A DNA stretch of 64,000 nt, taken from the NCBI GenBank assembly GCA_023511455.1, contig JAIMBJ010000015.1, forward strand, positions 1 through 64,000. The letters are read 5' to 3'. This document shows positions 1,402-14,249 of the stretch, piece after piece; positions within the stretch are counted from its first letter, which is position 1, and every line of letters starts with the position of its first letter. This stretch comes from Bacillota bacterium (GTDB lineage: Bacteria > Armatimonadota > HRBIN16). The position numbers were made by a program, and so were the translations under genes. Under the pieces are notes generated by a model that did no database searches, was not told the DNA's origin, and saw only the letters and a program-made list of their open reading frames with translations.

Positions 1402-3276
1402 TCACTCGCGGGTGCGCGCCACCTCGCGGGTTCGCTGCCACTCGCTCTTGAGCTGGTTCAGGAAGACTTCCACGCGCTGATTAGCGTCCTCGCAGTGGAT
1501 GGGCACGGGCACGGCTTCCAGCCCGATGGCGTCGTGGCTCATCAACAGCCAGTCGCCCTTTTTGAACTTGAAGGTCTGCGCGAACATCTCCTCGGCGATG
1601 CCGAAGGCTTCCGCAATCGCCTGTCGGTCGGACTGGCGCGGCATCTTGCTGACGAAATAGGTGTGGGGCTGCGCCATGATGCTGGTGTCCAGGTAGCGCA
1701 CGCGCTGGGTGGCGATGCCGATTCCGAGACCGAACTTGCGCCCGCGCCGCGCCAGCGTCATCACCACGAAGCGGGATCGCCCGTAGCTGTCGTCCGTGCC
1801 TTCGCGCCGCTGGGGAATGAATTCGTCTGCCTCGTCGAAGACGAACACCACCAGCGGGCTAATCTTGCCGCTCTTGCGTCGGTTCTCGAACATCACCTCG
1901 CCCAGCATGGCGGCGAAATCGCGCAGGCGGTCGGGGTCGTGCGACTGCACCACATATAAGCCAGAGGTATGCGGGTCGTTCAGGCGGGCTATCAGGTCGC
2001 CCAGCGTCATCTGGTAGGCCTCGTTCACGTGTCGCAGGCTGATGTATCGGCGGTGCGCCTCCTCGACGGCGGTGCGCAGCACCGTGAATGCCTCGCGGGC
2101 GTCGTTGGTAGTCAGCAAGCCGTTTTCGAACATCTCGTCGATCCAGTCGTTGATTTTGCGGGCGTTGGTTTCGTCGAAGGGAGTGTCGAAGTGGGTGATG
2201 ACCCAGTTGCGCACCGCCTGCCGGATGGTGGCGTCGTTCCTGCCCAGCGTGCCGCGCGGTTGCCAGTGTCGCTCCACCAGCCTGCCCAGCGTGGGGGGCT
2301 TTTCGCGGTAGAGATGCAGGCGTGCGCCCTTGGGGTTCAGCAGCCGTCGCCACGCAAAGCGGAAATCGCTGCGCCTGCCAATCAACGCGCGGGGATAGAG
2401 GGTGGTCTGTGTCAACGCAGTAAGCGCCTGGCTGAAGGTCTCGTTCGAGGGCTGTTCCATGAACTGCAGCACATCTTCGGGCAGGGTCTCTTCGGTCAGC
2501 ACCAGCAGCGCGGCATCGGGCGCTTTGACCAGCCAGTCCGCCAGCAGCACGCTGTACTCACTCATCAGGTCAAACAGCACCACTTTGACGTTCTCGCGCG
2601 GGGCGTCGGGCGGCGGTTCCAGCATCGTATACGCCTGCATCACCTTGTCCACCAGTGTGCTGACCAGGTTCGACTTGCCCGCGCCAGTGAAACCGAAGAT
2701 GGCGAAGTGCGTGCGCAGCAGGTCTTCCGCGGAGATTTTGACGCCCACCTGCGGGTCGCGCACCAGATTGCCCACGGTGAAGGTGGGAACGCCCACCGGC
2801 AGACCGCTGTTCAGCACGTATTCGGTGGAGGGTGTGTCCAGCAGCAACGCCTTCGCGCCGATCATGGGCAGGTTGCTCTCTTCCTGCAGGTGCGCTTTGC
2901 CATCGCGCTCCACCAGCTCCAGATTGGTGGGGATGGCGATGCAGCGGATTTTGGTCACATCTTCGGTGGGCTCGTGTTCCTGCTCCTCCCAGTCCCGCGC
3001 CGCGCTGCGCGCCGCCTCCACCACGAAACCGGGGTAACCCTGCGGGTTATCCCCCAGCCCGTAGTGCAACGGCAGGATAGAGACCACTTCGAGGATGGAA
3101 TGGTGGCTGGCTCCTGCTTCCGAGGCGAAGTTGGGCACCGCCAGCAGCGCGCCTTCACGGATCAGGTTCATTGCCTGCCGTGTGTAGTCGAACCAGATTT
3201 CGAACTCGTAGCGCGCTTCCGGGTCCTCCTGCATCCGGATGAGCGTGCCTTCCAGACCATTGACAAAGGTAATCAT
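1402..3276 (-). CDS. herA: HerA-like hexameric DNA-translocating ATPase (DUF87 family)
   Basis: Predicted HerA-type ATPase that pumps DNA and partners the NurA nuclease in end resection or DNA defence. A Walker A motif, GFTGAGKS, lies near residue 195. A Walker B, VVFVFDEADEF, lies in the C-terminal half and is followed by a long arginine-rich segment, as in the HerA/FtsK superfamily. An N-terminal beta-rich region of about 190 residues precedes the motor (HAS-barrel position). Two ATGs are possible. AAGGAG at 3290-3285 sits 8 nt from the ATG at 3276 but touches the one at 3282, so 3276 is preferred (624 aa). The Shine-Dalgarno overlaps the stop of the upstream nurA-like gene, which suggests coupled translation. 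Confidence 0.85.
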   Translation of the reverse strand: MITFVNGLEGTLIRMQEDPEARYEFEIWFDYTRQAMNLIREGALLAVPNFASEAGASHHSILEVVSILPLHYGLGDNPQGYPGFVVEAARSAARDWEEQEHEPTEDVTKIRCIAIPTNLELVERDGKAHLQEESNLPMIGAKALLLDTPSTEYVLNSGLPVGVPTFTVGNLVRDPQVGVKISAEDLLRTHFAIFGFTGAGKSNLVSTLVDKVMQAYTMLEPPPDAPRENVKVVLFDLMSEYSVLLADWLVKAPDAALLVLTEETLPEDVLQFMEQPSNETFSQALTALTQTTLYPRALIGRRSDFRFAWRRLLNPKGARLHLYREKPPTLGRLVERHWQPRGTLGRNDATIRQAVRNWVITHFDTPFDETNARKINDWIDEMFENGLLTTNDAREAFTVLRTAVEEAHRRYISLRHVNEAYQMTLGDLIARLNDPHTSGLYVVQSHDPDRLRDFAAMLGEVMFENRRKSGKISPLVVFVFDEADEFIPQRREGTDDSYGRSRFVVMTLARRGRKFGLGIGIATQRVRYLDTSIMAQPHTYFVSKMPRQSDRQAIAEAFGIAEEMFAQTFKFKKGDWLLMSHDAIGLEAVPVPIHCEDANQRVEVFLNQLKSEWQRTREVARTRE

Positions 3277-3289
3277 TGCCATCTCTCCT

Positions 3290-5146
3290 TCATCGTGGGT
3301 TCTCCTCGCGCAGTCGGCGCAGCGTTTTGGCGATGGGGTTGGAGTGGAACGGGATTTCGCTGCTGAGTATCAGCTCGCGGGCGCGTTTGCCCACCGTCTT
3401 CGCCCCCCAGTCTGCCTTGTGCATCGGGTCGGGATAGCCGATGGCCTCCGGGAAGTGATTGCGGGTGAGTACGTCCAGCAGGTACATCATCACCTGTTGC
3501 ACGGGGTTGTCGGCGTCGCGGTCAGGGTAGAGCAGGGGCTTGATGACACCCACGCGCGGGTTGCTGACGACGAAATCGTGCGACAGGGCGGATTTGTCCC
3601 ATCTGGGCATGGCGAGTCGGTCCAGAAAGATGACGTGTCCAGCGAGGGGCGTGCTTTTGCGGCGGTCCAGATAGAACTGCGCCAGCGAGCGCAGGAAGAG
3701 CCGTTCGGGAGAGACAATCTCGCCGATGCGACTGGGTGTGCCGATAATGGTGGGTTCGCCGGTGACCTCGTCGCGCCCCAACCGCAGCGTCTGGAACACC
3801 GAGTCGAACTCGATGGTGCTCCACGGCGCTTCCAGCGAGGTATCGCAGTACAGCGGTACCGTTTCCAGAAAGATGCGGTCTGTCCAGGGCAGGGGCGCGA
3901 CCTTCATCTGCTGCATTTCGGGATACACGCCCAGATGCTTCATCACGCCCAGGTAGTTGCGCGTGAGGTAGCGCGACTCCGAGTCCTTCACGATGCCCAC
4001 CAGCAGGATGTGGCGTTCCCAGCACTTTTCGATGAGCGCACGCAGCCCCACCGCAGTGAGGAAGTGCACATCCTCGGGCGACATCCACCGCTGACGGCGT
4101 ACGGTGGAGTCTTCCGGGTCAGTGGTTTCATACACCAGCGCGGAGGGGTCTTTGTCCACAAAGAGCCGTTCGCAGATGCTTTCGAACAGGCTGACGGTGT
4201 AGCGCCACGAGTCGCGGCACAGGTAGCGCGTGCGCAGGTTGCCCTGACCGTCCATCTCGCACAGCGGCACGGGCTTGCCCATGAGGATGCCTGTTGCGGC
4301 GTGCAGCTCGGTTTCGGAAAGGTTCAGGCTGCGGCGCAGGTCGTCCAGAGGCAGGCTTTGCGTGTTGCGGTGATGGAACTCCGCCAGCACCGCGAGATGC
4401 CGCCCGAACCGCTTGGTGGATGGAACCTGCAGCTCACGCGAGATGGGATGGGCGAACGCCACACGGATGTCGAAGGCGTCGAGCGCGCGGCGGTCATAAG
4501 GATAGCCTGCGAGCTGTGTGCCCGCGCCGTGCGATACCGCCGCCATCAGCCCGCTGAGCGACTGGTCCAGCATGATGAGGCGCGGGTAGTCGGTCGCGCT
4601 CGCACTGGCGACGGAGTAGGCGAGGTATATCTCCGCCAGCTGCATCAGGCTGAGGTGGATGTTCGAAAGGTTCACCCGATCGTGGTCGGAGACCACGAAG
4701 GTCTCCTGCACGTCGGCGTTGGTCACGTCCTCGATGTTGGCGAAAGGCACGGGTACGTAGGCAACGAGGGACACATCGCGGTTCATGTCCCAGCGTTCGT
4801 ATTGCACCACGGGCGGGTCGCTTTTCAGTCGCACCGAGCCTTTCGCGCCGTATGCCCCACCGAAAAAGACCACGAAGTCCTGAAAGGCGTCGCGGGTGCA
4901 GGTTCCGTCGATGGCGACGAAGTCGATTTTGTCGGTATCGAGGAGGCGTTCTGCCAGCTCGCGCAGGCGACGGCGCACGCTCTCGGAGCGGAAGCGGTCG
5001 TGGAAGGGAATCATCAGGCGGTGGAAGAAGCGGTGATAGAAGTCGCAACCGTTCTCCAGGCGGTCGCGGTAAAGGTGTTCGAACCGCTCCCGCGAGAAGA
5101 GCAGGGAATGATGATAACCCTTAAAAATCTCCGACAGCACGGACAT
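3290..5146 (-). CDS. nurA: NurA-domain nuclease, enlarged
   Basis: Likely the 5'-3' nuclease partner of the HerA ATPase encoded just downstream. The NurA signature aspartates are visible: VAIDGT near residue 80, and IMLDQSLSG near residue 195, where the family has a second D-G/S-S-L motif. At 618 residues it is much longer than typical NurA proteins (roughly 300-450), with extra central and C-terminal sequence. The ATG at 5146 follows a GGTGGTG ribosome site at good distance; a GTG at 5158 is the alternative. The upstream minus-strand extended -10 at 5183-5191 would drive nurA-herA as one operon. The order nuclease then ATPase and the tight spacing support the paired role; the exact process served is not visible. 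Confidence 0.8.
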   Translation of the reverse strand: MSVLSEIFKGYHHSLLFSRERFEHLYRDRLENGCDFYHRFFHRLMIPFHDRFRSESVRRRLRELAERLLDTDKIDFVAIDGTCTRDAFQDFVVFFGGAYGAKGSVRLKSDPPVVQYERWDMNRDVSLVAYVPVPFANIEDVTNADVQETFVVSDHDRVNLSNIHLSLMQLAEIYLAYSVASASATDYPRLIMLDQSLSGLMAAVSHGAGTQLAGYPYDRRALDAFDIRVAFAHPISRELQVPSTKRFGRHLAVLAEFHHRNTQSLPLDDLRRSLNLSETELHAATGILMGKPVPLCEMDGQGNLRTRYLCRDSWRYTVSLFESICERLFVDKDPSALVYETTDPEDSTVRRQRWMSPEDVHFLTAVGLRALIEKCWERHILLVGIVKDSESRYLTRNYLGVMKHLGVYPEMQQMKVAPLPWTDRIFLETVPLYCDTSLEAPWSTIEFDSVFQTLRLGRDEVTGEPTIIGTPSRIGEIVSPERLFLRSLAQFYLDRRKSTPLAGHVIFLDRLAMPRWDKSALSHDFVVSNPRVGVIKPLLYPDRDADNPVQQVMMYLLDVLTRNHFPEAIGYPDPMHKADWGAKTVGKRARELILSSEIPFHSNPIAKTLRRLREENPR

Positions 5147-5182
5147 GCGCGGCACCACCGCAGTTCACTCGGCGTTACGGAT

Positions 5183-7285: not shown

Positions 7286-7546
7286 ATGGAACGGCGTCCA
7301 CTGGATGAAGAAGCGTTGCTTTAGCGGATTACGGTGAACCCAGCCATCTTCGGGGGAAAGCCTATCATTCGTGGAAGACGGCTGGCGGTAGAACACGTGT
7401 TGGCGATGCTGGCCGCTGGAGATACGCCAGAGACCATCTTTGAAGGCTACCCCTGGCTGGAACCCGACGACATTCGGGCGTGTTTGGTCTACGCGCGGCG
7501 GCTCGTGGCTCGTGAGCGTGTGGATGCGTTGACAATCGAGACTTAG
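7286..7546 (+). pseudogene. DUF433 antitoxin-like gene interrupted by an in-frame TAG
   Basis: The frame starting at ATG 7286 reads MERRPLDEEALL, then TAG at 7322-7324, then RITVNPAIFGGKPIIRGRR and the rest of a DUF433 domain to the stop at 7546. In DUF433 proteins the residue before the R-I-T is commonly Gln, so a single CAG-to-TAG change explains the stop. DUF433 proteins are small winged-helix, VapB-like antitoxins often paired with a PIN/DUF5615 toxin; no toxin follows here. Translation could restart at the GTG at 7334 (70 residues), which keeps the whole core domain, so residual function is possible. A sequencing or assembly error is the main alternative. Confidence 0.6.
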
Positions 7547-7638
7547 CGAGAAAACCTTGTCCTCTACTCTAAAATTGAGGCCACAGCATGAGTTTAGATA
7601 CGCAGTGAATCCCAGCGCCACTCAGTCTGTCGCATCTA

Positions 7639-7668
7639 TTGACAGGTCTAAATGGGTCGTATTATAAT
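7639..7668 (+). promoter_or_regulatory. consensus promoter of the Dnd-like operon
   Basis: TTGACA at 7639-7644, an 18-bp spacer, and TATAAT at 7663-7668. Both hexamers match the sigma70 consensus exactly. It starts a leader of about 25 nt before the first gene at 7701. Confidence 0.8.
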
Positions 7669-7700
7669 CGAGCCGCCAATCCCTTGATTTGAGGTCGCAA

Positions 7701-7889
7701 ATGAGCCGTATTGAGGAATACAAAACATATCTGGAAGATTTGTGTAGACGACATGGCGTGCCCATAAACATGGTTGTCGAGATGTTAGAAATAGAATTGA
7801 TGAAGTCAAATATGCGGCGCCGACACAACCTCTACAATGACCTTCGTAAGATTATTGAAAAGTATCTGAAGGAGGACATACCACGTTGA
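7701..7889 (+). CDS. small Dnd-associated-type protein
   Basis: A 62-residue charged helical protein. The ATG at 7701 is chosen because GAGGT at 7691-7695 is correctly placed; an in-frame TTG at 7689 lacks a site. It overlaps the next gene by four bases (TTGA), so translation is probably coupled. Its position directly before a dndD-like gene matches small proteins of unknown function that accompany some DNA-modification systems; this is from memory of such loci and not a motif match. It contains no cysteines suited to metal binding except one. Role unknown; an adaptor or regulator of the DndD-like ATPase is inferred. Confidence 0.6.
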   Translation: MSRIEEYKTYLEDLCRRHGVPINMVVEMLEIELMKSNMRRRHNLYNDLRKIIEKYLKEDIPR

Positions 7890-9883
7890 TTATCCGTTCT
7901 TTCTGTGTTGAAAACTTTGGATGCTACCGCGATAGGGTATGCATACAGTTTGTGCCGCCGCAGACGGGACGAAACTTGTACCTGATTGGCGGGATGAACG
8001 GGCATGGCAAAACAACCCTAAGCACTGCCCTAAAAGTGTGTTTGTTCGGAATCCAAGGGCAACCTCGCCTCATTGCTGATTATGTTAACCGAGTCAACGC
8101 TCGACAAGGCAAAAACGATGTGGCTATGGAACTGGAGTTCGAGGAAGATAATAAGACCTATGTGGTGCAAAGGCGGTATTACACGCGAGGTTGGGCACAA
8201 GGTACTTGGGATGTCGAACTTCAGGTGTTGGTGGATGGTAATCGCTATGAGGGTGATGAAGCTGAGGATATTATTAACCAGATCTTTCCTTCTGACATTG
8301 CTGACTTCTTTCTCTTTGATGGAGAAGAGATTAAGAACCTTGCGGACAAGACAGAGGAAGACACTGCGCAGCAGATTGGCGAGTCGTTGGAAGCAATTCT
8401 GGGTCTCAGAGTTCTCAGAACATTGCAACAGGACTTGGAAAAGGTGCAAAATGACTATGCTCGTGAGAGCAGTAGTCAGAGTTACCAGGTCCTACGCTCG
8501 CTAGAGCAGAGATGCCGCGAGCTCGAAGAAAAAGCAGATGATTACCGTGATAAGATGGAGAACGTAAGAACAGAGCTCCAGCGCATCAACCGAGATATCC
8601 AAAGACGGGCGCAGGAACTGGAAAAGGTTCGGGGCGGTTATGAATATTATGCCGAACTACACCGTAGACTCCTGCGGCTTCAAAACCAATCAGATCGGAT
8701 ACTATCGCGTTTGCGTATAAATATGTCGGAGCGCTTGCCATTTGCCCTTGTAGCCACGTATCTGGAGCAATTTCTTATTGCTTCAGAACAATCAGCCCAG
8801 TTCCGTTTGCAGCAGCAGGCACATAGGGTTATTCAGCTGAGGCTCGCTGAGCTTGTACAACTGCTAAAAGAGAATGCGGAATGCATCTGTGGGCGGGCTC
8901 TTTCCTCTGATTCACTAAATCAAGTGGGACAGTTTTTGTATGCCCACTTATTGGAGCAATCCGGCAATGAAGATGGCAATGCGAACCCGCCGCTCGTGGC
9001 TGCCACTCTTCCGACCTTAAGAGAATCCGAGATTGCGGTACTGCGTGAGCACCTAAAACAGGCAGTCTTGTGTGAAGATGTCGTAAAACTCTCGGTAGAA
9101 CTGCGGCAATTGCAACGAGAGATGGAGGATGTAAAACAGCAACTGGACTCGTTGGGTGATTTGGGCGACCAACGCAAAACTGTGTCTGAACTGGAAAATA
9201 TCGTGCGGGAACTAAGTGAAAGGAAAGGTGCTCTGGAAAAAGAGTTTCAGACGCTAAAGCAATACGTAGAAAAGGACATACCAGGTGAACTAGAGAAGAC
9301 TCGTAACCAGATGCAACAGATTCGCGATGAGCTAATTAGGAGTGATAAGGCTCGCAAAGCAGAGAGGCTAGCGGGTAAGGTCAAAGACCTGATTGAGGAA
9401 CTTCTGCAGGCGATGCGAAGTCAGAAGATAGAGATGCTGGAGCGACACGTTACAGAAACATTGCGCAGGTTGTGGACAAAAGGCGAACTGCTGGACAGAG
9501 TTGAGATAATGCCTGATACGTTTGTGGTGTCCGTTGTGCAAAGGGGTGAAGGTAGGCTAGACAAGCAGGCACTGTCGGCAGGGGAGAAAGAGCTGTTTGC
9601 CCTATCGCTACTTGCCGGTCTGTGCAAGTGCGCAAGTTCCACGCTGCCTGTGCTAATCGATACGCCGCTTGGTAGACTGGACAGTGAGCATCGTGAGCAC
9701 GTTGTGCGCAACTATTACCCTTATCTAGCCCCGCAAGTCATATTGTTGTCTACTGACACGGAGGTTACCCGAGACCTCTACCAAGCTCTCCAGCCACATG
9801 TGTGTCAAACCTTCACTCTGGAATATGACTTGGCAAAGGAGAGCACTTCAATAAGGAAGGGATTTTTCGATTTCGACGTCTGA
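7886..9883 (+). CDS. DndD-like SMC/Rad50-type ATPase
   Basis: 665 residues, the usual DndD length. Walker A GMNGHGKTT is at residues 36-44. The DndD-typical FFLFDGEEI is near 141-149. Long coiled coils lie at about 155-330 and 395-510, split by a Cys-Ile-Cys pair (C333, C335) where SMC-like proteins have a hinge or zinc hook. The ABC signature LSAGEKE is at 563-569 and Walker B VLIDTPLGRLD at 589-599. In Dnd systems DndD is the ATPase of the phosphorothioate-DNA modification complex and needs the sulfur-transfer protein DndC, which is absent here. The TTG start overlaps the upstream stop and follows AAGGAGGA. The gene is visibly poorer in GC than mutS downstream, suggesting horizontal origin. 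A related SMC-like defence ATPase is the alternative. Confidence 0.85.
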   Translation: MIIRSFCVENFGCYRDRVCIQFVPPQTGRNLYLIGGMNGHGKTTLSTALKVCLFGIQGQPRLIADYVNRVNARQGKNDVAMELEFEEDNKTYVVQRRYYTRGWAQGTWDVELQVLVDGNRYEGDEAEDIINQIFPSDIADFFLFDGEEIKNLADKTEEDTAQQIGESLEAILGLRVLRTLQQDLEKVQNDYARESSSQSYQVLRSLEQRCRELEEKADDYRDKMENVRTELQRINRDIQRRAQELEKVRGGYEYYAELHRRLLRLQNQSDRILSRLRINMSERLPFALVATYLEQFLIASEQSAQFRLQQQAHRVIQLRLAELVQLLKENAECICGRALSSDSLNQVGQFLYAHLLEQSGNEDGNANPPLVAATLPTLRESEIAVLREHLKQAVLCEDVVKLSVELRQLQREMEDVKQQLDSLGDLGDQRKTVSELENIVRELSERKGALEKEFQTLKQYVEKDIPGELEKTRNQMQQIRDELIRSDKARKAERLAGKVKDLIEELLQAMRSQKIEMLERHVTETLRRLWTKGELLDRVEIMPDTFVVSVVQRGEGRLDKQALSAGEKELFALSLLAGLCKCASSTLPVLIDTPLGRLDSEHREHVVRNYYPYLAPQVILLSTDTEVTRDLYQALQPHVCQTFTLEYDLAKESTSIRKGFFDFDV

Positions 9884-9898
9884 CGGAGGAAGATGAAT

Positions 9899-11443
9899 AT
9901 GCCGTTGGGAAGGGTGCTAACATCAGAAAGGGCAGAGAAGATAAAAGACGATCTGACCGAGTTTACTGGACTGCGTGGTGATCAAGTTGCAGTGCTCGCT
10001 ATTTGTCTGTCCCTGGGTGTTTATGGGAAAAAGGAGTTTAGCTTCGAGGACGCTACTGGTTACGAACTTAATCCGCAAACTTTAACTCGCAACGGTTCTG
10101 ACCCGTGGGTAGAGGCGTTGTTCAGCCTCGTCTACGGGCGTGATTTATCCGTGCCGGAGGAGAGTGAGACTCTAACCCATCTGGTCAGGGGACACCTGAA
10201 TCATGGCTTGTACTTATTGCAAGAGATGAAGGACGGTTCTGGGGGCAGGCTCGATGCTTTTCTGAAAGAAATATCTCAGTATGTTACCATCCGTCATCTT
10301 CAACTTCAAGACAGATGGAGGCCCGTGGTACACGGAATTAAACTTTTTGTCGGCACAGATGTAGACAGCAGTAATCGGGTCGAATGGGAGTTTAATAATA
10401 CCGAAAAGTCCCCAAGCCCGCATGTTGGAATAGCAGGACGGTCGGGATATGGTAAGACACAGTTGTTGAAGGCGTTATTAGCACAATTGTGCGGGATAGA
10501 AGCGCGTGTACCCTGTCTGGTCTTCGACTATAAAGGTGATTTCGCACGTGATACATCCTTTGTTCAGTCTCTAAATGCACAGGTTCTAAACCCTGAGCAT
10601 GACCCGCTCCCTATTCACTTGTTTGCTCTTCCTGACTACAGCGAAAAAACAATTAAGCGTTTCGCTGCGCGAATGCAGGAATCATTTTCTGCTGCAGTCC
10701 GCATGGGTGAAAAGCAGCAGTACCGTCTGAGGCAAGCAATCATTGAAGCCTTCAACCGGCGCAGAGGCAAGGCCCCTCCTTATCCAGACTGGAGAGAAGT
10801 AGCCGAAGCAAACTGTAATCTCAGTCAGAGTGGCGAGGCCGACACTGTGTCTGGCGTCCTTGATAAAATTGTTACTTATGAACTGTTTGCAGATAGCACT
10901 ACTAGCGTTCCCAACGAACCTTTCTATGCGCGGAATACCATCATCGACTTGAGTGCCCTGAGTGCTTATCAGGAACTGGTCGTCTATCTGCTACTTGACC
11001 ATGTGTATTATGATATGCGTTCCAAAGGCGATGCTTTGATCAGCGAGGGATGGCAAGAGCTTCGTCTGATTATTGCCTTAGACGAAGCACACCATTACTT
11101 ACAGGAGGACAACCCCGTTCTGGGCAGACTTTTACGAGAGGGACGCAGTTTCGGTATTGCGGTTTTCTTAAGCACACAAACCTTATCTGACTTCTCTAAC
11201 CAATCCGTAGACTATTCTGAGCTAATCAACAACGTTTTCCTGTTTCAATTGGCACAAGTTAAGCGGGCAGATCTAACCAAGCTCCTAAGGGTTTCCCGCG
11301 AGGAGGCTCGCGGGTTAGAGGATGAGATACACCGTCTTAAGCCAGGACAATGCGTGTGGAGTCGTCCGGTGGGCATTGGAGATAGGACATATTCGGTCAT
11401 CGAGGCGGAACAATTCTACAAGACAATTGGAAGGGACATTTAG
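9899..11443 (+). CDS. DndE-domain protein fused to a HerA/DUF87 ATPase
   Basis: A two-part protein. The first 120 or so residues resemble DndE, with LTSERAEKIKDDL and a hydrophobic helix. DndE is a small DNA-binding member of the phosphorothioation complex. The remainder is a HerA/FtsK-type motor with Walker A GRSGYGKT (residues about 180-187), FDYKGDF, Walker B LIIALDEAHHYL (about 390-401) and a sensor-like STQT (about 425-428). Standalone DndE is about 110 residues, so this is a fusion, comparable in design to DptH-like ATPases. GGAGGA at 9885-9890 is 8 nt from the ATG at 9899 and only 2 nt from the one at 9893, so 9899 is preferred (514 aa). It follows the dndD-like gene by 15 bp, in the same operon and with the same low GC. 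Confidence 0.8.
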   Translation: MPLGRVLTSERAEKIKDDLTEFTGLRGDQVAVLAICLSLGVYGKKEFSFEDATGYELNPQTLTRNGSDPWVEALFSLVYGRDLSVPEESETLTHLVRGHLNHGLYLLQEMKDGSGGRLDAFLKEISQYVTIRHLQLQDRWRPVVHGIKLFVGTDVDSSNRVEWEFNNTEKSPSPHVGIAGRSGYGKTQLLKALLAQLCGIEARVPCLVFDYKGDFARDTSFVQSLNAQVLNPEHDPLPIHLFALPDYSEKTIKRFAARMQESFSAAVRMGEKQQYRLRQAIIEAFNRRRGKAPPYPDWREVAEANCNLSQSGEADTVSGVLDKIVTYELFADSTTSVPNEPFYARNTIIDLSALSAYQELVVYLLLDHVYYDMRSKGDALISEGWQELRLIIALDEAHHYLQEDNPVLGRLLREGRSFGIAVFLSTQTLSDFSNQSVDYSELINNVFLFQLAQVKRADLTKLLRVSREEARGLEDEIHRLKPGQCVWSRPVGIGDRTYSVIEAEQFYKTIGRDI

Positions 11444-11574
11444 TGGGTTTTTGTTGCGAATACCTGCGTATGGTTTTTTGACGTGTGCAAAACAATGCTT
11501 ATGTCTTTTGTCTCGCATAAACCAAAAGTCATTTGACGAAGCCAGCATCCTTCTCCGTCATAGTTCCACAGCTC

Positions 11575-11583
11575 TGGTATAAT
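11575..11583 (+). promoter_or_regulatory. extended -10 promoter of mutS
   Basis: TGGTATAAT directly upstream of mutS, giving a very short leader. The rest of the interval 11444-11574 is AT-rich and shows no gene or convincing terminator hairpin. Confidence 0.5.
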
Positions 11584-11603
11584 CATGGTGAGGTGTTCCC
11601 GTT

Positions 11604-14249
11604 TTGGCGATGTCGCAAACGAACACAATTCAACCCCAAACCCCCATGCTGCAGCAGTACTTCCGGGCGAAGGCGGAGTACCCGGAGGCGTTGCTGATGA
11701 TGCGCGTGGGCGATTTTTATGAGCTGTACGGCGAGGACGCCGAAATCGCCGCGCGCGAGCTGGAGATTGTGCTGACGGGGCGCGACGACGGCAAGAACGG
11801 GCGCGTGCCGATGGCGGGCGTGCCCTACCACGCCGTGGAGCGCTACGTCGCCCGGCTGGTGCAGAAGGGCTACAAGGTCGCGCTGATGGACCAGATGGAA
11901 GACCCCCGCTTCGCGAGGGGGCTGGTCAAGCGCAAAGTCACCCGCGTGCTGACGCCCGGCACCGTGCTGGAAGACTCCATGCTGGAGGAGCGCAGCAACA
12001 ACTACCTGGTGGCGGCGGTGGCGGGCGAAAAGCTGTCGGGGCTGGGCGTGGTGGATGTCTCTACCGGTGAGTTTCTCGCCACCGAAATCCGCGGGGAGTT
12101 GAGTCTCGCGCGCATCGTGCAGGAGATTGTGCGCCTGCAACCCGCGGAGTGCCTGGTGCCTAAAGACGCCACCGATTTAGCGGCAGCCATCGAGGAAGCC
12201 TGCCACGCTACCGTCACCCTGTACGACCCGCAGGAGTATGCCGACCGCCGCGATGCCCGCCAGCTGTTGCTGCAACACTTCCAGACGCAATCCCTGCGCG
12301 GTTTCGGTTGTGAGGACTACTCGGTCGGTCTAGAAGCGGCGGCGATGGTGCTGCGCTACCTGAAGCGCAATCAGGTCTCCGCGCTACAGCATATCCGCAC
12401 GCTGTCCACGTATTCGGTGGATAACTTCATGTATCTGGACGCCGCGGCGCGGCGCAATCTCGAGCTGACCCGTTCGCTGGTGGACGGCTCGCGCAAGGGC
12501 ACGCTCATCGAAGTGCTGGACATGACCCGTACGGCGATGGGGGCGCGCCTGCTGCGCCGCTGGCTGGATGAGCCTTTACAGGACATCGACGCGATAGAAA
12601 CGCGCCTGCAGTGCGTGCAGGAGCTGGTGAACGACTCCCTCACCCGCGAGGAGGTGCGCCACCAGCTGGGCAGACTGGGCGATTTGGAGCGGCTCACCTC
12701 GCGCATCGCCACAGGGGTGGCATCGCCGCGCGATTTGGCGGCGCTGAGACAGTCCCTGCAGGTGCTGCCCGAACTGCACGCCGCGCTACAGCCGGTGCAA
12801 ACACCCCGCCTGCAACACCTGCGCGAAGCCATCCGGGGCATGCCCGACCTGGCTGGCTTCATCGCCCGCGCGATTGTGGACGACCCGCCCGCCACGCTGA
12901 AGGACGGCGGCGTCATCAGGGACGGCTTTCACGCCGAGCTGGACTCCATCCGCCGCGCACAGCGCGAGGGGAAACAGTGGATTGCAGACCTGGAGCTGCG
13001 CGAGCGTGAGCGCACCGGCATCCCGTCGCTGAAGGTGGGCTACAACGCCGTTTTTGGCTATTACATCGAGGTTTCCAAGCCGCATCTTTCCAAAGTGCCC
13101 GCCGACTACATGCGTAAGCAGACCACCGCCAACGGCGAGCGGTTCATCACGCCCGAGCTGAAGGAGATGGAGGCGCAAATCACGGGGGCGGAAGAGCGCG
13201 CGCTGATCCTGGAGCAGGAGCTGTTCAGCATGGTGCGCGAGGAGGTCGCGCTGCACGCCCCCGAGATACTGGACATCGCCCGCGCGGTGGCGGAACTGGA
13301 CGTGCTGGCGAACTTCGCGGAGGTCGCCGTGCGCAACGACTACCAGCGTCCGGTGGTGCATTCGGGCACGCACATCCGCATCCGCAACGGCAGGCACCCG
13401 GTGGTGGAGCGTTTCGGCATGCAGACCTTCATCCCCAACGACTGCGTGCTGGACGATGAGCAGCGCATGATCGTGCTGACCGGCCCGAACATGAGCGGCA
13501 AAAGCACCTACCTGCGACAGGTCGCGCTGATTTGCCTGATGGCGCATATCGGCAGCTTTGTGCCCGCGGATGAGGCGGAGATTGCGCTGATAGACCGCAT
13601 CTTCACCCGCGTGGGCGCGCATGACGAACTCGCTACTGGGCAGTCTACCTTTATGGTAGAGATGACCGAGACCGCCACCATCCTGAACCATGCCACCGAG
13701 CGCAGTCTGGTGGTGCTGGACGAAATCGGGCGGGGCACGAGCACCTACGACGGTCTGGCGATTGCGTGGGCGGTGGCGGAGGCGCTGGTGCAGATTGGCT
13801 GCAAGACGCTGTTCGCCACGCACTATCACTACCTGAACGAGCTGGCGAACCTGATGCCGGGCGTGCGCAACTATCGCGTGGCGGTGAAGGAGCAGGGCGA
13901 GCAGATTATCTGGCTGCACAAGGTGCTGCCTGGCGGCACGGATAAGAGCTACGGTATTCAGGTGGCGCGGATGGCGGGAGTGCCGCCGGAGGTGGTGGCG
14001 CGGGCGCAGGAGATTCTGCGCGAGCTGGAGCGGCAGTCCACGCAGCGCGGCGGCATGGCGAGCGCGATTGCCCCCGACGCCGAGGCGGTTTCCAGCGTGA
14101 AGGTCCACAAACAGAAGCTGCAGCTGACCCTCTTCGAGGCGGAGAAACATCCCGTCATCGAGGAGCTGGACAAGATGGATGTAACCACCCTCTCGCCGCT
14201 GGAGGCTCTGCTGAAAATCAACGAGTGGAAGAAGCAACTTAAGACGTAG
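11604..14249 (+). CDS. mutS: DNA mismatch repair ATPase MutS
   Basis: Recognises mismatches and starts methyl-independent or MutL-dependent repair. The N-terminal mismatch-binding domain carries the F-x-E motif region (GDFYELYGEDA). Connector, lever and clamp domains follow, and the C-terminal ATPase has Walker A TGPNMSGKST (about 627-636), the STFMVEM loop and Walker B VVLDEIGRGTSTYDG. At 881 residues it is of normal MutS1 length. The GGTGAGGTG site at 11588-11595 is 8 nt from a TTG at 11604 and 14 nt from an ATG at 11610, so the start is uncertain by two codons. No mutL is adjacent. GC content returns to the local high level here, marking the right edge of the Dnd-like island. Confidence 0.97.
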   Translation: MAMSQTNTIQPQTPMLQQYFRAKAEYPEALLMMRVGDFYELYGEDAEIAARELEIVLTGRDDGKNGRVPMAGVPYHAVERYVARLVQKGYKVALMDQMEDPRFARGLVKRKVTRVLTPGTVLEDSMLEERSNNYLVAAVAGEKLSGLGVVDVSTGEFLATEIRGELSLARIVQEIVRLQPAECLVPKDATDLAAAIEEACHATVTLYDPQEYADRRDARQLLLQHFQTQSLRGFGCEDYSVGLEAAAMVLRYLKRNQVSALQHIRTLSTYSVDNFMYLDAAARRNLELTRSLVDGSRKGTLIEVLDMTRTAMGARLLRRWLDEPLQDIDAIETRLQCVQELVNDSLTREEVRHQLGRLGDLERLTSRIATGVASPRDLAALRQSLQVLPELHAALQPVQTPRLQHLREAIRGMPDLAGFIARAIVDDPPATLKDGGVIRDGFHAELDSIRRAQREGKQWIADLELRERERTGIPSLKVGYNAVFGYYIEVSKPHLSKVPADYMRKQTTANGERFITPELKEMEAQITGAEERALILEQELFSMVREEVALHAPEILDIARAVAELDVLANFAEVAVRNDYQRPVVHSGTHIRIRNGRHPVVERFGMQTFIPNDCVLDDEQRMIVLTGPNMSGKSTYLRQVALICLMAHIGSFVPADEAEIALIDRIFTRVGAHDELATGQSTFMVEMTETATILNHATERSLVVLDEIGRGTSTYDGLAIAWAVAEALVQIGCKTLFATHYHYLNELANLMPGVRNYRVAVKEQGEQIIWLHKVLPGGTDKSYGIQVARMAGVPPEVVARAQEILRELERQSTQRGGMASAIAPDAEAVSSVKVHKQKLQLTLFEAEKHPVIEELDKMDVTTLSPLEALLKINEWKKQLKT

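What the first reader, a model, noticed from the sequence alone, without database searches (positions are those of the whole stretch)
7639..11443. Reduced Dnd-like module: small protein, DndD-like ATPase and DndE-HerA fusion without dndA, dndB or dndC
Seen: a three-gene operon behind an exact-consensus promoter, with overlapping or closely spaced genes, in a visibly AT-richer island between a broken DUF433 gene and mutS. It encodes a 62-residue protein, a full-length DndD-like SMC ATPase with all ATP motifs intact, and a protein joining a DndE-like domain to a HerA-type motor. Known: Dnd phosphorothioation needs the sulfurtransferase DndC and a cysteine desulfurase, with DndB as regulator and DptFGH for restriction. 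None of these is in the flanks. Inference: it is either a self-contained defence or DNA-processing module that uses a DndD/DndE machine for something other than sulfur insertion, or a mobile fragment of a fuller island. Intact ATP motifs and tight coupling argue for a working unit.
Basis: partly seen in the sequence, partly recalled or inferred. Interest (0 to 1): 0.85.

Follow-up and report, generated by a model that had tools for sequence, protein, structure and literature searches.

The report
DndC-less DndD–DndE/HerA DNA-motor module
A horizontally acquired three-gene unit keeps the DNA-gripping machine of a known bacterial DNA-sulfur system but has swapped the sulfur-adding enzyme for just its small docking tail and gained a DNA pump; this makes it a testable, non-sulfur variant of a known anti-virus machinery, with relatives in more than ten phyla.

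Summary
In detail: consensus promoter, 62-aa protein, DndD ATPase, and a DndE–HerA fusion, in an island with GC3 ~0.5 against ~0.85 in flanking genes. The near-complete host genome has no DndC, DndB, HsdS, PbeA or DndH. The DndE–HerA/DndD pairing is already published (Rakesh 2024), so the architecture is not new.

Three points go beyond the held papers. (1) The small protein is a free-standing copy of the DndC C-terminal tail, the stretch shown biochemically to dock on the DndD head: its profile hits 11/11 full-length DndCs there, 0/4 short DndCs and 0/2200 shuffles; in three short-DndC loci a separate small-protein gene sits beside dndC. (2) The trio recurs in at least 12 phyla, normally without dndC: of 34 loci with enough upstream sequence, 26 carry HsdM/HsdS and 1 carries dndC. 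(3) The window form has no modification gene; a same-genus genome has its first two genes at another site, under purifying constraint.

Best reading: a mobile anti-invader effector core in which the small protein fills the DndC dock and DndE ties DndD to a HerA translocase. It cannot insert sulfur by the known route. Defence is inferred, not shown. New variant of a known kind.

The parts
7639..7668 (+). Sigma-70-type promoter TTGACA-18-TATAAT, 12/12
   Evidence: a similar promoter (TTGACA, TAGAAT) precedes the same-genus copy in G186
7701..7889 (+). SP: 62-aa small protein (Sp-DndD/PbeB type), homologous to the DndC C-terminal DndD-docking tail (SP residues ~7-55)
7886..9883 (+). DndD/CxC-type coiled-coil ABC ATPase, 665 aa
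   Evidence: (TIGR03185, 376 bits), (Rad50/SMC-like fold)
7988..8014 (+). DndD Walker A (GGMNGHGKT)
   Evidence: sequence
8882..8890 (+). CxC motif (CIC), candidate Zn-hook in the low-confidence region between the two long coiled-coil helices (aa 333-335)
9572..9592 (+). DndD ABC signature LSAGEKE
   Evidence: sequence
9893..11443 (+). DndE-HerA fusion, 516 aa
9902..10231 (+). DndE domain (aa 4-113)
   Evidence: profile alignment; PF08870, weak
10334..11338 (+). HerA translocase domain (aa 148-482), closest solved structure DndH C-domain 7es4
7286..7546 (+). Broken DUF433-type gene; in-frame TAG at 7322-7324
7401..11624 (.). Block absent from the sister genome G185, where ~14 bp join DUF433 to mutS; the insert lies within it

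Best explanation
A mobile, horizontally acquired anti-invader effector core built on the DndD-DndE DNA-scanning machine, working without phosphorothioation. Shown: the gene order, intact ATP motifs, homology of the small protein (SP) to the DndC docking tail, the DndE-HerA fusion, absence of DndC genome-wide, recurrence without dndC, purifying constraint. Inferred: SP binds the DndD head where the DndC tail would; the DndE part binds the DndD coiled coil and DNA; this loads a HerA-type dsDNA translocase, whose motor strips or stalls replication of invader DNA, or feeds that DNA to a nuclease supplied in trans. In most relatives an HsdM/HsdS methylase (with a nuclease-like domain on HsdM) supplies self marking. 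The window copy lacks this, so it either recognises a structural cue of foreign DNA or works with a mark made elsewhere in the genome.
For: SP homology to DndC: P0001 alone hits PADLOC DndC model positions 409-457/481 (E 4e-7), TIGR03183 positions 400-446/447 and a full-length DndC at E 7e-6. The SP-family HMM hits 11/11 full-length DndCs at their C-terminus, 0/4 short DndCs, 0/2200 shuffles. E. coli DndC 436-485 is the match; PMC12193691 maps DndD-head binding to 433-482 and breaks it with L458D/E462A/R471A. In three short-DndC loci a separate SP gene is adjacent (L093, L145, L165). Trio recurrence: SP in 43/48, HsdM/HsdS in 26/34, dndC in 1/34, 12 named phyla. Own genome: PF01507 0, TIGR03183 hits only the SP, PF14072 0, PF01420 0, the only PLDc hits belong to a polyphosphate-kinase-like protein, a single match to P0003 so no DndH. 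Constraint: SP pN 0.33/pS 0.90, DndD N-terminus 0.35/0.92 against G186 at another site. Foldseek: DndH C-domain 7es4 E 1e-26; HerA of known antiphage complexes. PbeB, C and D are each essential for antiviral activity in PbeABCD while loss of pbeA leaves a little (PMC6459918).
Against: No nuclease and no modification gene in the module. In the one tested Pbe system, loss of phosphorothioation abolished protection (PMC6459918), so a core without a mark may be silent. No functional data for any DndE-HerA system were found. The G186 copy is cut by a contig end, so only SP and the first 104 aa of DndD are seen twice in the genus. SP docking rests on homology, not on a modelled complex.
Confidence: 0.55

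Rival explanations
1. Orphaned effector: a SP-DndD-DndE/HerA core that was transferred without its modification partner and now has little or no defence activity, or depends on the host's lone TaqI-like methylase for a mark.
For: 26/34 relatives carry HsdM/HsdS; the window has none and the genome has no HsdS and one N6_Mtase, of TaqI type by eye, without HsdS. PbeABCD without phosphorothioation was inactive. Only 2 of 10 genus members show any part of the module.
Against: dS is saturated while dN stays ~0.45 between two same-genus copies that both begin directly at SP without upstream partners; all motifs intact; no remnants of hsdMS or dndC nearby.
Confidence: 0.25
2. A DNA-maintenance or repair machine (Rad50/HerA-like) rather than defence, for example cooperating with the neighbouring HerA-NurA pair or maintaining a mobile element.
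For: The ATPase has a Rad50-like fold and a CxC hook motif; a HerA/NurA-like pair and mutS flank the insert.
Against: nurA and mutS are native neighbours in the genus with or without the insert; sporadic, low-GC, hotspot location and homologues tied to R-M genes point to conflict, not housekeeping.
Confidence: 0.12
3. Phosphorothioation by a non-canonical sulfur donor that uses the SP as a docking adaptor for an unrelated enzyme.
For: SP could act as an adaptor; some relatives pair SP with a short DndC.
Against: No PAPS-reductase-fold protein was detected in the host genome.
Confidence: 0.03

Closest known systems
DndE-HerA fusions beside a DndD-related ABC ATPase ('clade-3 HerA/FtsK', Rakesh et al. 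2024, PMC10853773)
   Same: Same fusion and same neighbour ATPase; the HerA domain groups with other fusion HerAs here.
   Different: [quoted passage not shown] here dndC is absent from almost all, HsdM/HsdS is the usual partner, and the window form has no modification gene.
PbeABCD / CxC ABC-ATPase system (Xiong 2019, PMC6459918)
   Same: Gene order SP(PbeB)-ATPase(PbeC)-DndE(PbeD), CxC motif in the ATPase.
   Different: No PbeA (PLD nuclease + SF2 helicase); DndE is fused to a HerA motor; tree placement of the ATPase is unresolved.
DndABCDE phosphorothioation system
   Same: DndD, DndE, and the DndC C-terminal docking tail.
   Different: No sulfurtransferase domain and no DndB in the genome; no dndA beside it.
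DndFGH restriction system
   Same: HerA domain most like the DndH C-domain (7es4, E 1e-26).
   Different: None of the N-terminal DndH domains, no DndF or DndG; the tree separates the two HerA groups.

Membership tests
Dnd phosphorothioation system | DndD-type ATPase | tested here: met
   TIGR03185 376 bits, cut-off 246
Dnd phosphorothioation system | DndE | tested here: met
   as N-terminal domain of a fusion; own profile E 3e-5, Pfam below cut-off
Dnd phosphorothioation system | DndC sulfurtransferase in genome | tested here: not met
   PF01507 0 hits; TIGR03183 hits only the SP tail
Dnd phosphorothioation system | Phosphorothioate in DNA | not testable with these tools
   needs LC-MS/MS
PbeABCD | Small protein PbeB | tested here: met
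   PADLOC PbeB E 2e-6, PF20306 above cut-off
PbeABCD | CxC ABC ATPase in the Pbe clade | tested here: inconclusive
   CxC present; tree puts it outside sampled Pbe at weak support, AU p 0.38 for joining
PbeABCD | PbeA PLD/SF2 protein | tested here: not met
   none in the window; genome PLDc hits are a polyphosphate-kinase-like protein
DndE-HerA fusion systems (Rakesh 2024) | DndE fused to HerA next to a DndD-like ATPase | tested here: met
DndFGH | DndF, DndG and multi-domain DndH | tested here: not met
   absent from window; only one match to P0003 in the genome
MADS | eight-gene mad1-8 set | tested here: not met
   only a cross-match of the HerA domain to mad8 (E 1e-19, weaker than to DndH); no methylase or S subunit beside it

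The most novel reading that the evidence does not exclude
A stand-alone, modification-free and nuclease-free immune machine: the catalytic sulfurtransferase of Dnd has been replaced by its bare docking tail, turning DndD-DndE from a DNA-modifying complex into a loader for a HerA DNA pump that blocks invader DNA mechanically.
Probability: 0.3. Interest if true: 0.82.

Novelty: new variant of a known kind. Interest (0 to 1): 0.62.

Why it matters
[quoted passage not shown] It also shows the same core coupled to Type I-like methylation across many phyla, so sulfur looks like one interchangeable front end of a wider machine. One pull-down and one plaque assay would decide the main points.

Tried and rejected
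Truncated Dnd island: rejected, no dndC/hsdMS/pbeA remnants and dndC-free homologues. Phage origin: 0 relatives in IMG/VR. Nuclease within the module: none found. Membership in MADS: rejected. Placing the ATPase in one clade: AU tests do not separate Pbe (0.38), short-DndC (0.29) and canonical (0.16); joining the HsdMS-type is borderline rejected (0.045). A PDB search with the SP found nothing of use. A paper search for MADS literature gave nothing relevant. The 2020 ABC-ATPase paper (gkaa726, recalled as reference 24 of PMC10853773) that first reported related systems is not held, so priority for the HsdM/HsdS coupling or the SP-DndC link could not be fully checked.

Full report
OBSERVATION. 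The three genes, their spacing and the promoter are as described. The island is foreign by composition: GC3 is 0.50, 0.51 and 0.49 for the three genes and 0.83-0.85 for nurA, herA and mutS. In the sister genome G185 (MutS 98% identical) the DUF433 remnant and mutS are joined by about 14 bp, so the block 7401-11624 is missing there. The nurA-mutS interval is a variable site in the genus: G187 carries an 846-aa methyltransferase-like ORF of low GC there, and G184 a longer insert.

HOST GENOME. In the 98.98%-complete genome there is no PAPS-reductase domain, no DndB, no Type I specificity subunit, one N6 methylase that looks TaqI-like by its motifs and has no HsdS, and PLDc hits that belong to a polyphosphate-kinase-like protein. 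The DndC model finds only the small protein, at model positions 398-446 of 447. P0003 finds no second relative such as DndH, and the DndD model finds no second DndD above cut-off.

THE SMALL PROTEIN IS THE DNDC TAIL. P0001 matches the last ~50 residues of DndC in PADLOC (E 4e-7) and NCBIfam (5e-5), and phmmer with P0001 alone hits a full-length DndC at E 7e-6. An HMM of the SPs hits 11 of 11 full-length DndCs at their C-terminus (E 5e-6 to 5e-13), none of four short DndCs, and none of 2200 shuffled DndCs. In E. coli DndC the match is 436-485. Published work maps the DndD-head interface to DndC 433-482 and disrupts binding with L458D/E462A/R471A (PMC12193691); in the E. coli DndC used here those residues have the same numbers, the RR pair (470-471) is kept in the SPs aligned (one KR exception, L064), and the window SP also keeps the glutamate. 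Short DndCs in L093, L145 and L165 lack the tail and have a separate SP gene beside them; in L152 the SP lies with the second ATPase. The literature I could read calls this protein rapidly evolving and mostly disordered, and guesses a negative regulator. The docking reading is my inference from homology.

NEIGHBOURHOODS. A GTDB scan gave 67 loci. About 50 carry the DndE-HerA fusion with DndD upstream. With at least 4.5 kb upstream of DndD available, 26 of 34 have HsdM and 23 have HsdS; one has dndC; SP is present in 43 of 48 testable loci; 12 named phyla are represented. HsdM carries an HSDR_N_2 domain as well as N6_Mtase, with an E-x-K-type nuclease motif by eye. Of 30 whole genomes with the fusion, two have a DndC above cut-off, at other places; in most of the others that match the model at all, the match is only the tail segment. 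The genome scan used patterns from two sequences, so it under-samples distant forms. In the phylum, 2 of 291 genomes have the full fusion (G000, G055). In the genus, G186 has SP and the first 104 aa of DndD (51% identity) beside a tRNA at a different site, ended by the contig.

SELECTION. Window against G186: SP pN 0.33 and pS 0.90; DndD N-terminus pN 0.35 and pS 0.92; dS is saturated. Both copies have overlapping SP/DndD genes and a sigma-70-like promoter.

PHYLOGENY AND STRUCTURE. The ATPase is a deep lineage of its own; AU tests leave its sister group open. It carries a CxC in the low-confidence region between the two long helices of the AF2 model, as Pbe ATPases do; the HsdMS-linked DndDs do not. 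The HerA part groups with the other fusion HerAs (93/96), apart from DndH (96/98); two DndE fusions, L152 and L165, carry a different FtsK-type motor, so DndE appears to have joined a DNA pump at least twice (long branches make this provisional). AF2 and Foldseek give Rad50/SMC heads for the ATPase and the DndH C-domain and HerA for the fusion.

MECHANISM. Shown: parts, homology, conservation, absence of DndC. Established elsewhere: the DndC tail binds the DndD head, DndE binds the DndD coiled coil 2, and PbeB, C and D are each essential for antiviral activity. Inferred: SP caps or completes the DndD head; DndE-HerA couples ATP-driven DNA scanning to dsDNA translocation; the outcome is arrest or clearance of invader DNA. 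The weak point is self/non-self: relatives have HsdMS, the window copy does not, and one Pbe system is inactive without its mark.

KNOWN OR NEW. The fusion and the DndC-less DndDE core are published. Solitary Pbe cores are published. I found no held paper that links SP to the DndC tail or this core to HsdM/HsdS, with the caveat that the 2020 source paper is not held. Hence: new variant of a known kind.

Noticed in passing
window 1402-5158, minus strand: A HerA and NurA-like pair lies just upstream; nurA is a conserved neighbour of mutS in the genus.
   Followed up: partly
nurA-mutS interval in G187 (L135) and G184 (L134): Variable insertion site: G187 has an 846-aa DNA-methyltransferase-like ORF with low GC, G184 a multi-gene insert.
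   Followed up: partly
L152:8714-9992 and L165:6040-7563: DndE fused to an FtsK-type motor unlike the HerA of the other fusions, suggesting convergent capture of a DNA pump.
   Followed up: partly
L033:7365-8000, L064:3824-5750, L071:11544-12191: A ~210-aa family (weak Mrr_N match), up to three tandem copies, sits around SP and DndD in relatives and is missing in the window.
   Followed up: partly
L043:6136-7176 and others: RhuM-family gene between HsdS and SP in many relatives.
   Followed up: no
L026:4547-7029: N6/N4 methylase plus TdeIII restriction enzyme in place of HsdM/HsdS upstream of the same SP-X-DndD-fusion core.
   Followed up: no
L023:12777-15574: G055 carries two SP copies, each followed by an X-family gene, and a protein with a sub-threshold KwaB match downstream.
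   Followed up: no
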